Below the pieces are notes generated by a model. That model was given only the letters and a program-made list of their open reading frames with translations, did not search any database and was not told the origin of the DNA. A program made the translations under genes and the position numbers. DNA of 11,586 bases from Candidatus Moraniibacteriota bacterium (GTDB lineage: Bacteria; Patescibacteriota; Minisyncoccia; Moranbacterales; UBA11712): the NCBI GenBank assembly GCA_003157295.1, contig PMJF01000071.1:1-11586 (forward strand), in the 5' to 3' direction. This document shows, in pieces, positions 2,464-5,603 of this stretch (its first letter is position 1; every line of letters begins with the position of its first letter).

Positions 2464-5400
2464 TTAAACCACAAAATTAATTAAACGATCGGGCACAAAA
2501 ATGACTTTTTTAATGGTCTTTGCGTCGATGTATTTTACTATTTTATCCTGTGCCAGCGCCAGTTCTTTCGCATCCTTTTCCTTGACACCCGCCGTGACCT
2601 CGATTTGATCGCGCACTTTGCCGTTTATTTGGATAATAAGCGAAATTTGCTCGTCTTTTAAATATTCTTTTTCTGGTTCTGGCCATTTTTCGAGGAATAC
2701 AGAAGTTTTATGACCAAGCCTTTCCCAGAGTTCTTCGGAGAAATGAGGAGCAAACGGAGAGAGCAAGATAATGAATTTTTCATAGTCATCTACACGGATA
2801 AATGTTGATAAAGATGATTCTAATTCGACCGAATCGGGAAATTGCTGGCTAGCTTCTGTTTTATATAATCCATTCAAAAAAATCATCATCTGGCTTATTG
2901 CTGTATTAAATCTAAAATTTTCAATATCTTCCGTGACTTTTTTAATGGTTTTATTTAAGATAATTTTAAGATTTTTTGGTGTATTTCCCTTGCTTTTATC
3001 ATTTTTCCATTTTTCTATATCGCACCAATTTTTAAACCATTCTTTGCCATTTTTTTCTTGCCTTCTTAGGTGTTCGAATATTCTGTCTAAAAATCTCCTC
3101 ATCCCCACCACCCCTTTCGTACTCCAGGCGATGTTTTGCGTGAAGGGCCCCATGAACATTTCATAAAGCCGAACCGAATCCGCTCCGTATTCTGAAATTA
3201 CTTCATCAGGATTGATGACATTTCCCCAGCGCTTGGACATTTTTCTTCCGTCTTCGCCCTGGATAAGTCCTACGTGGACTAATTTCTTGAAGGGCTCCTT
3301 TGTGGAAACCGCTCCGATGTCGTATAAAAATTTGTGCCAGAAACGGGCGTAAAGAAGATGCCGCGTGGCGTGTTCCGCTCCGCCGACATAAAGATCAACC
3401 GGCATCCATTTTTTTTCTTCTGATTTTCCCACCAATTCTTTGGCATTCTTGGGATCGATATAGCGAAGATAATACCATGAGGATCCCGCCCATTGCGGCA
3501 TGGTGTTCGTTTCGCGTTTTGCCGTGCAGCCGTCACCCTTCGTGTGATCACCCGCAGGGTGACACTTTGGACATTTCACGTTCACCCATTCTTTAATGCC
3601 GGCGAGCGGCCCTTCCCCCATTCCGGTCGGTTCGTATTTTTCCACTTTCGGAAGTTCGACCGGCAGATCTTTTTCCGGGACGCCGACCGTTCCGCACTTT
3701 TCGCAATGGATGATCGGGATCGGCTCACCCCAATATCTTTGCCGCGAAAAAACCCAGTCTCGCATCTTGAAGTTCACTTTCTTCCCGCCTATTCTTTCTT
3801 TCTCCAGCCACTTCACCATTTCCCCGCGGGCTTTTTCGGAGGTCAGCTCGTTATATTTTCCGGAATTTATTAGAACACCGGAATCGGTATACGCATCAAT
3901 ATTTTGAGCATAGGCTTTGGCCAGAAAAATATCATCCGGAATCGTAACAGAACTTGAAAGCAGATCACGCTTGACCCAAACGAGATCGTGCAGTTTTTCT
4001 TCTTCTTGGCTTATGGCCTCATTTTTTTCTGATAATAATTTGCAGACAACGCCTGTGGTTTTCACGTATCGATTCAGGTCTTTATGCGCGGCAAAAAATT
4101 CCGCGTGAAACTCTATCGGATGAATTCTTAAGACTTCGACGTCGGTATATCCGGTTTCCTCGGCTATTTCGCGCAATGCCGTTTGCTCGGGCGTTTCTTC
4201 ATTTTCTATCCCGCCAATTATAAAGGTTTTGGGTTTCTCCTTCCCCCATTCATCGCCCTTTAAGTTCAATGTAAGGACTTCCCCTTTTTTATTTTCCAAT
4301 ATTACATGAACAACTCTCCTTACTGTATTCTCTTTTCCCTTTCTCGGAGGATTGCTTTCGTCCAGGCTATACGGCGCCACCACTTGTTTGACCGGCAAAT
4401 TGTATTTCTTCGCGAATTCAAAATCCCGCTCGTCGTGCGCCGGGACAGCCATAACCGCGCCGGTTCCATAGTGGCCGAGGACGTAATCAGCAATAAACAA
4501 AGGAAGTTCTTCATCATTAAAAGGATTGATCACTTTTACGCCCTTGAGTTCAACCCCTGTTTTATCCTTCTGCAGATCGGTTCTCTCGAGATCCGTCTTG
4601 TTTTGCGCTTGGATAATATATTTTTCAACTTCTTTGTAGTTTTCGATTTGATCTTTTATTTTCTCGATAATTGGATGCTCCGGGCCTACGACGCAGTATG
4701 TACACCCGAAAATAGTATCGAGGCGAGTGGTAAAGACTTCGAGCCAGTCTTTTCCGTTGCCAATTTTGAATTTAATGGTCGCTCCCTCGCTTCTTCCGAT
4801 CCAGTTTTTTTGCTGGTCCACAATTGATTTTTCCCAATCCAAGTCTTCGCTGTCAAGATCTTCGAGCAGACGATCGGCATATTCTGTCATTTTGAGGACC
4901 CATTGGCGCATTTTTTTCTGGACCACCTGCGACCCACAGCGTTCACAAAGACCGTTTTCGAGATCCTCAAGCGCCAGTCCCGTTTTGCAGCTGGGGCACC
5001 AATTGATCGGCTCGTCGGATTCGTAGGCAAGACCTTTCTCGAACATCTTGAGAAAGATCCACTGCGTCCATTTATAATATTCCGGATCGGTCGTGTTGAT
5101 CTCTCGATCCCAATCGTATGTGAGCCCGAACAGCTCTAGCTGTTTTTTGAAAGTTTTGATGTTTTCTTTGACTGCCGCCTCAGGATGAATTTTGTTTTGG
5201 ATGGCATAGTTTTCCGCCGGCAAACCAAAAGCGTCCCAACCCATCGGATGTAGGACGGAATAGCCCTTGAGCATCTTGAATCTCGAAACAACATCGGTCG
5301 CGATATACCCCTTCGGATGCCCAACATGCAGCCCCGCTCCCGAAGGATAGGGAAACATATCCAAGGCATAGAATTTCTTATCGCGCGAATAGTCCTTATA

Positions 5401-5466
5401 TATGCCACTTTCCGCCCATTGCTTCTGCCATTTAGGCTCAATTTTCGCTGGATTATATTTATTCAT
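2464..5466 (-). CDS. leuS: Leucyl-tRNA synthetase with an inserted Nudix domain
   Basis: Class I synthetase that charges tRNA-Leu and hydrolyses mischarged products. It has 1000 residues from ATG at 5466, against about 800-870 for usual bacterial LeuRS. In order: N-terminal MNKYNPAKIEPKW; HIGH-type motif HVGH (47-50); zinc ribbon CxxC at 157/160 and 174/177; editing-domain motifs TTRLDT (246-251) and AHDERD (343-348, catalytic Asp345); an extra ~150-residue Nudix domain (about 366-522); AYTDSGVLINSG resuming the editing domain; a second Cys-pair region (588/591 and 632/635); QWAGSSWYYLRY; KMSKR at 742-746 (variant of KMSKS); an anticodon-binding helical domain and the C-terminal tRNA-contact domain. 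An in-frame palindromic insertion adds about HPAGDHTKGDG at 636-646. An upstream start at 5520 stays open but would translate a palindromic repeat; the family N-terminus supports 5466, preceded by a weak AGAAG. Confidence 0.95.
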   Translation of the reverse strand: MNKYNPAKIEPKWQKQWAESGIYKDYSRDKKFYALDMFPYPSGAGLHVGHPKGYIATDVVSRFKMLKGYSVLHPMGWDAFGLPAENYAIQNKIHPEAAVKENIKTFKKQLELFGLTYDWDREINTTDPEYYKWTQWIFLKMFEKGLAYESDEPINWCPSCKTGLALEDLENGLCERCGSQVVQKKMRQWVLKMTEYADRLLEDLDSEDLDWEKSIVDQQKNWIGRSEGATIKFKIGNGKDWLEVFTTRLDTIFGCTYCVVGPEHPIIEKIKDQIENYKEVEKYIIQAQNKTDLERTDLQKDKTGVELKGVKVINPFNDEELPLFIADYVLGHYGTGAVMAVPAHDERDFEFAKKYNLPVKQVVAPYSLDESNPPRKGKENTVRRVVHVILENKKGEVLTLNLKGDEWGKEKPKTFIIGGIENEETPEQTALREIAEETGYTDVEVLRIHPIEFHAEFFAAHKDLNRYVKTTGVVCKLLSEKNEAISQEEEKLHDLVWVKRDLLSSSVTIPDDIFLAKAYAQNIDAYTDSGVLINSGKYNELTSEKARGEMVKWLEKERIGGKKVNFKMRDWVFSRQRYWGEPIPIIHCEKCGTVGVPEKDLPVELPKVEKYEPTGMGEGPLAGIKEWVNVKCPKCHPAGDHTKGDGCTAKRETNTMPQWAGSSWYYLRYIDPKNAKELVGKSEEKKWMPVDLYVGGAEHATRHLLYARFWHKFLYDIGAVSTKEPFKKLVHVGLIQGEDGRKMSKRWGNVINPDEVISEYGADSVRLYEMFMGPFTQNIAWSTKGVVGMRRFLDRIFEHLRRQEKNGKEWFKNWCDIEKWKNDKSKGNTPKNLKIILNKTIKKVTEDIENFRFNTAISQMMIFLNGLYKTEASQQFPDSVELESSLSTFIRVDDYEKFIILLSPFAPHFSEELWERLGHKTSVFLEKWPEPEKEYLKDEQISLIIQINGKVRDQIEVTAGVKEKDAKELALAQDKIVKYIDAKTIKKVIFVPDRLINFVV
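3532..3563. repeat. Nested palindromic element inserted in frame in leuS
   Basis: Perfect outer arms GTCACCCT (3532-3539) and AGGGTGAC (3556-3563) enclose a central perfect palindrome GTGATCAC (3544-3551). The 32-bp unit lies inside leuS and encodes most of an 11-residue stretch that interrupts the second Cys-pair region, where LeuRS proteins usually read CPKCG-PAKRET. The reading frame is kept. This resembles palindromic elements known inside genes of other bacteria (for example the Rickettsia palindromic elements), but the family identity is unknown. Confidence 0.65.
3901..4371 (-). other. Nudix hydrolase domain embedded in the LeuRS editing domain
   Basis: LeuRS residues of about 366-522. 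The complete Nudix box is present at residues 418-440 (bases 4147-4215): Gly418, Glu424, Arg432-Glu433, Glu436-Glu437 and Gly439 match G-x5-E-x7-R-E-U-x-E-E-x-G-U exactly, so metal binding and catalysis look intact. Strand-rich flanks (TVRRVVHVIL before, LHDLVWVKRDLL after) fit the fold. The host editing domain resumes at AYTDSGVLINSG. The role of the insert is unknown; hydrolysis of a nucleotide-linked substrate, or a purely structural role, are possibilities. Boundaries are approximate. Confidence 0.88.
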
Positions 5467-5545
5467 ATTCTTCTGCTTGCCCGTCCGCAGCTTTAGCGAA
5501 GGCGGGCCACTTTTCTTCAATTTTTTTCGGGTCGTATTTTTCCAT
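5459..5545 (-). pseudogene. 28-codon leader ORF, remnant of a second leuS start
   Basis: An ATG ORF that begins MEKYDPKKIEEKW, a clear relative of the true leuS start MNKYNPAKIEPKW (9 of 13 residues identical), continues with PAFAKAADGQAEEYE encoded by a palindromic element, and ends in TAA. Its stop overlaps the leuS start: the leuS ATG lies inside the last codons, in another frame. The two N-termini differ at many synonymous positions, so this is not a fresh tandem copy. It may be the relic of a replaced leuS or a diverged duplicate. Because of the overlap it may now act as a translationally coupled leader peptide. No SD is evident for it. Confidence 0.7.
5479..5507. repeat. Imperfect palindromic element at the leuS start
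   Basis: Arms GCCCG (5479-5483) and CGGGC (5503-5507), extended by imperfect pairing, surround a CTTTAGC centre. The second arm reads GCGAAGGCGGGC. From memory, near-identical palindromes of the form GCCCGCC-GAAGC-TTTA-GCGAAGGCGGGC are abundant between and within genes of Patescibacteria contigs. Here it forms the second half of the leader ORF and lies immediately before the true leuS start. Confidence 0.6.
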
Positions 5546-5558
5546 ATTTATGATAAAG

Positions 5559-5603
5559 CTACTCTTTTAGCTTAGCCTGTTTCAGTGTTTCTTTCAAGGC
5601 CAT
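5559..5603 (-). other. Possible 14-codon micro-ORF or gene-end remnant
   Basis: ATG at 5603 opens MALKETLKQAKLKE, closed by TAG at 5559, 13 bp before the leader ORF. The frame extends upstream without a stop for about 15 more codons to a TGA, and the sequence (SIKVKD before MALKETLKQAKLKE) has the look of an amphipathic coding helix. It could be a short leader, the eroded 3' end of a lost gene, or chance. There is no SD and no family match that I recognise. Confidence 0.2.

What the first reader, a model, noticed from the sequence alone, without database searches (positions are those of the whole stretch)
5459..5545. A diverged second leuS N-terminus forms a leader ORF that overlaps the leuS start codon
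Seen: ATG at 5545 opens MEKYDPKKIEEKW, 9 of 13 residues identical to the leuS start MNKYNPAKIEPKW at 5466. The frame then runs through a palindromic element and stops at a TAA that overlaps the leuS ATG region (ATGAATAA). The two copies differ at many synonymous sites. Inference: either a relic of an older leuS displaced by homologous or homeologous recombination, or a diverged duplicate now used as a coupled leader peptide that could control leuS translation.
Basis: partly seen in the sequence, partly recalled or inferred. Interest (0 to 1): 0.72.

Follow-up and report, generated by a model that had tools for sequence, protein, structure and literature searches.

The report
Displaced leuS start beside palindromic element
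The extra leuS beginning in front of the leucyl-tRNA synthetase gene is real; it looks like the gene's old front end, cut off by a short palindromic DNA element while a second, diverged front end took over, and the same arrangement recurs in other ultra-small bacteria.

Summary
ORF 5459-5545 (minus strand) starts MEKYDPKKIEEKW, 9 of 13 residues identical to the leuS start at 5466; 200 window shuffles reached at most 6. The palindrome is a 31-bp element (5476-5506) of a family found in 67 of 285 class genomes, with a covarying hairpin.

The layout recurs: I found 17 species with a leuS start copy ending at the Trp-13 position, then such a hairpin, then a diverged intact leuS start. The in-frame duplication without the element was found in 0 of 379 genomes. 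Gene-end relics beside the element also occur at transketolase, M48-peptidase and tRNA genes.

Best reading: copy 1 with its promoter is the original leuS 5' end, displaced by an element-linked event that left leuS a second start. It is broken in three relatives and in frame with leuS in four. The tRNA and M48 relics rule out translational coupling as a general explanation; in the window it stays possible, untested.

Unsolved: what moves the element, and where copy 2 comes from; which copy is older differs between cases. TGG at the junction was imposed by most searches. A close analogue is the fungal mitochondrial hybrid gene (PMC3630166).

The parts
5561..5597 (-). putative promoter (TTGAAA ... 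GCTAAGCTAAAAGAGT) of the original leuS start
   Evidence: similar TTGAAAAAA..GCTAAAGT stretches precede leuS in several relatives; closest to G007's leader; by eye, no promoter test
5507..5545 (-). copy 1: displaced leuS 5' end, ATG to Trp-13 codon (MEKYDPKKIEEKW)
5459..5545 (-). 28-codon ORF of copy 1 read through the element; TAA overlaps leuS ATG
5476..5506 (-). palindromic element CCCGCCTTCGCTAAAGCTGCGGACGGGCAAG
   Evidence: covariation in the family
5467..5475 (-). spacer CAGAAGAAT between element and leuS ATG; may continue copy 1 as codons 14-15 (Q-K)
   Evidence: inference by eye
5428..5466 (-). copy 2: present leuS start MNKYNPAKIEPKW
2464..5466 (-). leuS, 1000 codons, LeuRS domains (PF00133, PF13603, PF08264)

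Best explanation
Copy 1 (5507-5545) is the original 5' end of leuS, still carrying the old promoter. A short palindromic element sits directly behind its Trp-13 codon, and the event that placed it there also left leuS with a second, diverged 5' end (copy 2) from which the enzyme is now made. Copy 1 is therefore a displaced gene end. SHOWN: the layout, its recurrence in 17 species, the lack of the tested duplication phase without the element, decay of copy 1 in three lineages, and comparable relics at other gene ends. INFERRED: that insertion and duplication were one event. Possible routes are template switching between the similar codons 1-4 (M-x-K-Y) and 13-16 (W-Q-K-Y), or arrival of a relative's gene end; the filter would be that insertion into an essential gene survives only if an intact end is restored. 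What moves the element is not known.
For: 17 species with leuS copy-element-copy: 11 of 18 loci of an exact pattern scan of GTDB r220 genomes and 8 of 379 phylum genomes, own genome included, all 25 match rows inspected. The in-frame 36-nt duplication without the element: 0 of 379 in the same sample, up to 3 mismatches, against 4 in-frame and 4 unfused cases with it. An exact pattern leaving the junction free (GGCAAG 2-32 nt before a leuS ATG) hit 2 of 383 class genomes, G000 and G002, both with copy 1 ending at TGG. Polarity: G124's copy 1 starts ATGGAAGA behind a promoter similar to G125's single start; copy 1 is nearer than copy 2 to every element-free relative compared for G668 (1), G702 (2), G678 (1) and G693 (1). 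Copy 1 is broken in G590, G485, G002. In 87 unselected element sites, 9 had flank similarity above the null 99th percentile at protein level (about 0.9 expected), 4 at DNA level; read by eye these include transketolase, M48-peptidase and tRNA gene ends (families). Element hairpin: positions 4-23 pair in 71 of 91 distinct elements (shuffle maximum 60), 12-15 in 84 of 91 (maximum 66).
Against: Most searches required TGG before the element, so the fixed junction is partly ascertainment; one search was exact and misses other tails and the in-frame cases. Polarity is not uniform: of 9 cases compared, copy 1 is nearer to relatives in 4, copy 2 in 2 (the window, against all 4 relatives, 25 vs 21 of 33 for G001 and by 1-2 for the rest; and G590, against 5 of 6 by 2-6 and 1 by 4-5), and 3 are mixed or tied (G007, G124, G536). 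Copies differ at 157 of 516 sites in 15 alignable cases, 85 at third positions, 50 synonymous and 51 nonsynonymous codons: a fresh duplication would be near identical, and a dead relic should show a lower third-position share. Between G678 and G693 copy 1 differs at 6 sites, 5 synonymous (sequences), which suggests constraint, at least where fused in frame. 78 of 87 unselected elements show no flank duplication at these thresholds. No transposase was linked to the element.
Confidence: 0.55

Rival explanations
1. Coupled leader: copy 1 is translated and hands ribosomes to leuS by termination-reinitiation at the overlapping stop/start, with the hairpin tuning this.
For: In 10 of the 12 unfused cases entered (of 13) the copy-1 frame ends between -2 and +14 nt of the leuS ATG, including ATGA and ATGNATAA overlaps; copy 1 keeps Tyr-4 and Ile-9 in 11 of 11 early cases.
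Against: leuS starts themselves carry stops in the other two frames at +4 to +28 in 23 of 24 frames examined, so overlap is nearly automatic once the copy-1 frame is open. Copy 1 has stops in G590 and a frameshift in G002. Relics at tRNA genes and behind M48-peptidase stops cannot couple translation. No Rfam match in the window.
Confidence: 0.15
2. Homeologous replacement only: a foreign leuS recombined in, leaving the resident start as debris; the element is incidental.
For: leuS of this genus is closer to other families than to its own at a syntenic locus; the copies differ at codon level like two separately evolved starts.
Against: The element is at the same codon in all 17 cases (though most searches imposed this); no element-leuS arrangement without copy 1 among 383 genomes. 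G590's copy 2 is like its own genus, and the first 96 residues of G124's LeuRS are 84% identical to its genus mate.
Confidence: 0.18
3. Old tandem duplication of leuS codons 2-13 by slippage; the element landed later in the spare copy.
For: Codons 1-4 and 13-16 are similar, giving a slippage site; the copies are more diverged than the element's own arms (by eye).
Against: 0 of 379 genomes with the tested in-frame duplication lacking the element, against 4 in-frame and 4 unfused cases with it in the same sample; other phases were not tested.
Confidence: 0.12

Closest known systems
Fungal mitochondrial hybrid genes made by mobile ORFs (atp6, atp9, cox2, nad3 of Glomus; atp6 of Allomyces; PMC3630166, passages read)
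   Same: A mobile insert leaves two diverged copies of one gene end, the native one displaced; for Glomus atp6 the paper gives 63.5% DNA and 91% amino-acid identity between the copies.
   Different: There the insert encodes an endonuclease and 3' ends are swapped; here the insert is about 31 bp, encodes no enzyme, and in leuS the 5' end is affected, in bacteria.
Rickettsia palindromic elements (PMC10969869, passages read)
   Same: Short palindromic repeats inside conserved genes, often as in-frame fusions.
   Different: The review gives about 150 bp; the passages read do not mention duplication of the target gene end. Sequences were not compared.
REP elements and RAYT transposases (PMC3733652, passages read)
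   Same: 20-40 bp hairpins with short unpaired ends, also found inside genes.
   Different: No GTAG or CGTC tag at the window element; its tail is CAAG. No Y1 transposase match in the window's genome and no significant association in the class sample.

Membership tests
REP / RAYT-mobilised elements | GTAG or CGTC tag next to the hairpin | tested here: not met
   window element reads AAGTGG-CCCGCC...GGGCAAG-CAG; feature taken from PMC3733652
REP / RAYT-mobilised elements | cognate Y1 transposase in the genome | tested here: not met
   PF01797: no match in G000 (90% complete); element-positive genomes 49 of 67 with Y1_Tnp versus 137 of 218 others, Fisher p 0.14
Dispersed palindromic element (general) | dispersed copies with conserved base pairing | tested here: met
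   67 of 285 class genomes (reversed-pattern control: 2 genomes); covariation. Movement itself was not observed.
Mobile-ORF hybrid gene | two diverged copies of a gene end around an insert | tested here: met
Mobile-ORF hybrid gene | endonuclease ORF in the insert | tested here: not met
   insert is 31 bp plus a 9-bp spacer
Regulatory leader peptide | leader ORF conserved across relatives | tested here: inconclusive
   open into the element in 11 of 12 unfused cases entered, stopped in G590; frameshifted in G002, motif lost in G485
Regulatory leader peptide | leader translation changes downstream expression | not testable with these tools
   needs reporter or ribosome profiling
Rickettsia palindromic elements | sequence relationship to a known RPE family | not tested
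   no RPE sequence was fetched

The most novel reading that the evidence does not exclude
Patescibacteria host a minimal 'insert and restore' mobile element: a hairpin of about 30 bp that enters conserved gene ends (leuS codon 13, transketolase, M48 peptidase, tRNAs) and in the same event supplies or copies a working replacement gene end, the bacterial counterpart of mitochondrial hybrid-gene elements but without an enzyme of its own.
Probability: 0.3. Interest if true: 0.82.

Novelty: new variant of a known kind. Interest (0 to 1): 0.62.

Why it matters
It would explain how hairpin elements survive in near-minimal genomes where many genes are essential, it gives an exact, repeatedly hit site (leuS Trp-13) for studying their mobility, and it warns that leuS starts in these genomes can be mis-annotated or hybrid. 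Paper searches listed no description of it; the library is open-access only, one search found no paper, the other listings were capped (8 to 20 papers shown) and I saw titles and abstract beginnings there.

Tried and rejected
Chance similarity: rejected. Assembly error: unlikely, because 17 species share the layout, 11 of them in public records of several projects. RAYT/IS200 mobilisation: no support. Known RNA element: no Rfam match in the window. Plain target-site duplication at every insertion: not supported, since 78 of 87 unselected sites lack detectable duplications, although old non-coding duplications would be invisible to that test. Slippage duplication first: not supported in the phase tested. 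A special link between leuS and tRNA-Leu: four tRNA-Leu cases were seen (L038, L039, L111, L192), but three came from TGG-requiring patterns, so I make no claim. TIGR stem arrays (PMC12045711, passages) were considered because they hold palindromes and occur in CPR bacteria; not tested. RNA folding of four copy1-element-copy2 stretches gave the element hairpin in G000, G124 and G693 and another pairing in G678; I noticed no other shared structure.

Dropped rows: I removed pattern-selected loci, sites with short flanks and near-identical right flanks, leaving 87. Of its 9 high-scoring sites I do not read L097, L113 and L087 as gene-end relics. L061 (transketolase) reads as a relic but was not above that threshold. 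In one search G485 was left out of the counts for a 1-nt length difference; G002 was never entered because of its frameshift, and it is also missing.

Full report
WHAT IS THERE. On the minus strand the window reads: putative promoter (5597-5561), ATG at 5545, codons MEKYDPKKIEEKW ending in TGG at 5507, a 31-bp palindromic element (5506-5476, CCCGCCTTCGCTAAAGCTGCGGACGGGCAAG), a 9-bp spacer CAGAAGAAT, and the leuS ATG at 5466 opening MNKYNPAKIEPKWQKQW. The similarity of the two starts is beyond chance. The window is one contig of a 1.02 Mb, 84-contig genome; two of its family members, G002 and G007, match named Ca. Moranbacteria/Moraniibacteriota records.

IT RECURS. Among the first relatives, family members G007 and G002 showed the same order: promoter, leuS start copy, palindrome, leuS; same-genus G001 and family members G004, G005, G006 did not. 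A pattern scan of 128 order genomes matched 7 genomes, of which G000, G007 and G124 are leuS cases. An exact scan of the GTDB r220 collection gave 18 loci; 11 are leuS with this layout (Berkelbacteria, Moranbacteria/Moraniibacteriota x3, Magasanik-, Kaiser-, Falkow-, Nomurabacteria x2, a Paceibacterota bacterium and an unnamed bacterium) and 7 are chance matches in other groups. A phylum sample of 379 genomes gave 25 match rows in 24 genomes; 8 genomes are leuS cases: G000, G702, G485, G590, G536, G678, G693, G668. G702 and G668 are the unnamed-bacterium and Berkelbacteria cases of the exact scan. Together these are 17 species. In four (G668, G702, G678, G693) the first copy is in frame with leuS through the element and the second copy has no ATG of its own.

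THE ELEMENT. A generic pattern found it in 67 of 285 class genomes; the reversed control hit two genomes. Two base pairs that the pattern restricts but does not fix covary: 71 of 91 against a shuffle maximum of 60, and 84 of 91 against 66; relatedness inflates such counts somewhat. In G693 the insert at the same leuS place has another sequence but again folds into a hairpin ending in CAAG.

COUPLING OF ELEMENT AND DUPLICATION. The in-frame 36-nt duplication without the element was found in 0 of 379 phylum genomes with up to three mismatches; only this phase was tested. The same sample holds 4 in-frame and 4 unfused cases with the element. An element tail GGCAAG 2-32 nt before a leuS ATG occurred in 2 of 383 class genomes, G000 and G002, both with copy 1 (exact pattern, other tails missed). 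Most other searches demanded TGG before the element, so the fixed junction is only partly an independent result.

WHICH COPY IS OLD. G125, a genus mate of G124, has a single start..aggatATGGAAGATAAATAC; G124's copy 1 has a similar promoter and the identical ATGGAAGA, there interrupted by a second, different palindrome. In one search (33-nt comparison, 9 cases) copy 1 is nearer to element-free relatives in G668, G702, G678 and G693; copy 2 is nearer in G000 (all four relatives) and G590 (all six); G007, G124 and G536 are tied or mixed. In G590 copy 1 has decayed, but its first codons still look like the genus mates' start. For the window, copy 1 resembles G007's copy 1 (33 of 39 nt). The leuS of this genus is closer to other families than to its own at a syntenic atp-leuS-nucleotidyltransferase locus, so gene replacement is a real component here.

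STATE OF COPY 1. Across 15 alignable cases 157 of 516 sites differ between the copies, 85 at third positions, 50 codons synonymous and 51 nonsynonymous. Copy 1 is broken in G590 (stops), G002 (frameshift) and G485 (motif lost), but looks constrained between G678 and G693, where it is fused in frame (6 differences, 5 synonymous). It is thus not a generally required leader.

OTHER GENE ENDS. Among 87 unselected element sites, 9 exceeded the null 99th percentile for flank similarity at protein level and 4 at DNA level. Read by eye, several are gene-end relics: transketolase starts (L061, L066; PF00456), three successive ends of an M48 peptidase (htpX by recall) separated by two elements (L105) and one more such case (L106; PF01435), a tRNA-Asn 3' end (L074) and a tRNA-Lys 5' end (L101). 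Pattern-selected cases add tRNA-Leu and tRNA-Gln 5' ends (L038, L039, L175, L192).

MECHANISM. The common denominator is a hairpin element inside or beside a displaced gene end, next to an intact gene. I favour one event in which insertion and restoration of the gene end are linked. For leuS the similar codons 1-4 and 13-16 offer a template-switch site; transfer of a relative's gene end would explain the synonymous divergence better. The data do not decide. No transposase was connected.

COMPARISON. It works like the mitochondrial hybrid genes of fungi (PMC3630166, passages), but lacks the endonuclease that defines those elements. It shares form with Rickettsia palindromic elements (PMC10969869, passages) and REPs (PMC3733652, passages), but the REP tag and transposase features were tested and not met.

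Noticed in passing
window 3958-4320 (LeuRS residues 383-503): A NUDIX domain (PF00293) sits inside the LeuRS CP1 editing domain; the same-genus G001 enzyme shows none, G124 and G009 have it, and G005 has another insert with a sub-cutoff nucleotidyltransferase hit. One paper search found no paper with all its terms.
   Followed up: partly
L040 and L057 (G124); similar stretches in L113, L114: A second palindrome family, CCCCGTTAGA..TCTAACGGGG, with a similar tail; in G124 it interrupts copy 1 itself.
   Followed up: no
L111, L112: A full tRNA-Leu or tRNA-Ala gene is followed by the element, roughly 35-45 bp, an inverted element-like stretch, and a second copy of the tRNA 3' end (by eye).
   Followed up: no
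L105: Three successive diverged copies of the C-terminal end of an M48 peptidase, separated by two elements.
   Followed up: partly
L101: The 5' end of a tRNA-Lys gene occurs three times in a row, the first split by the element.
   Followed up: no
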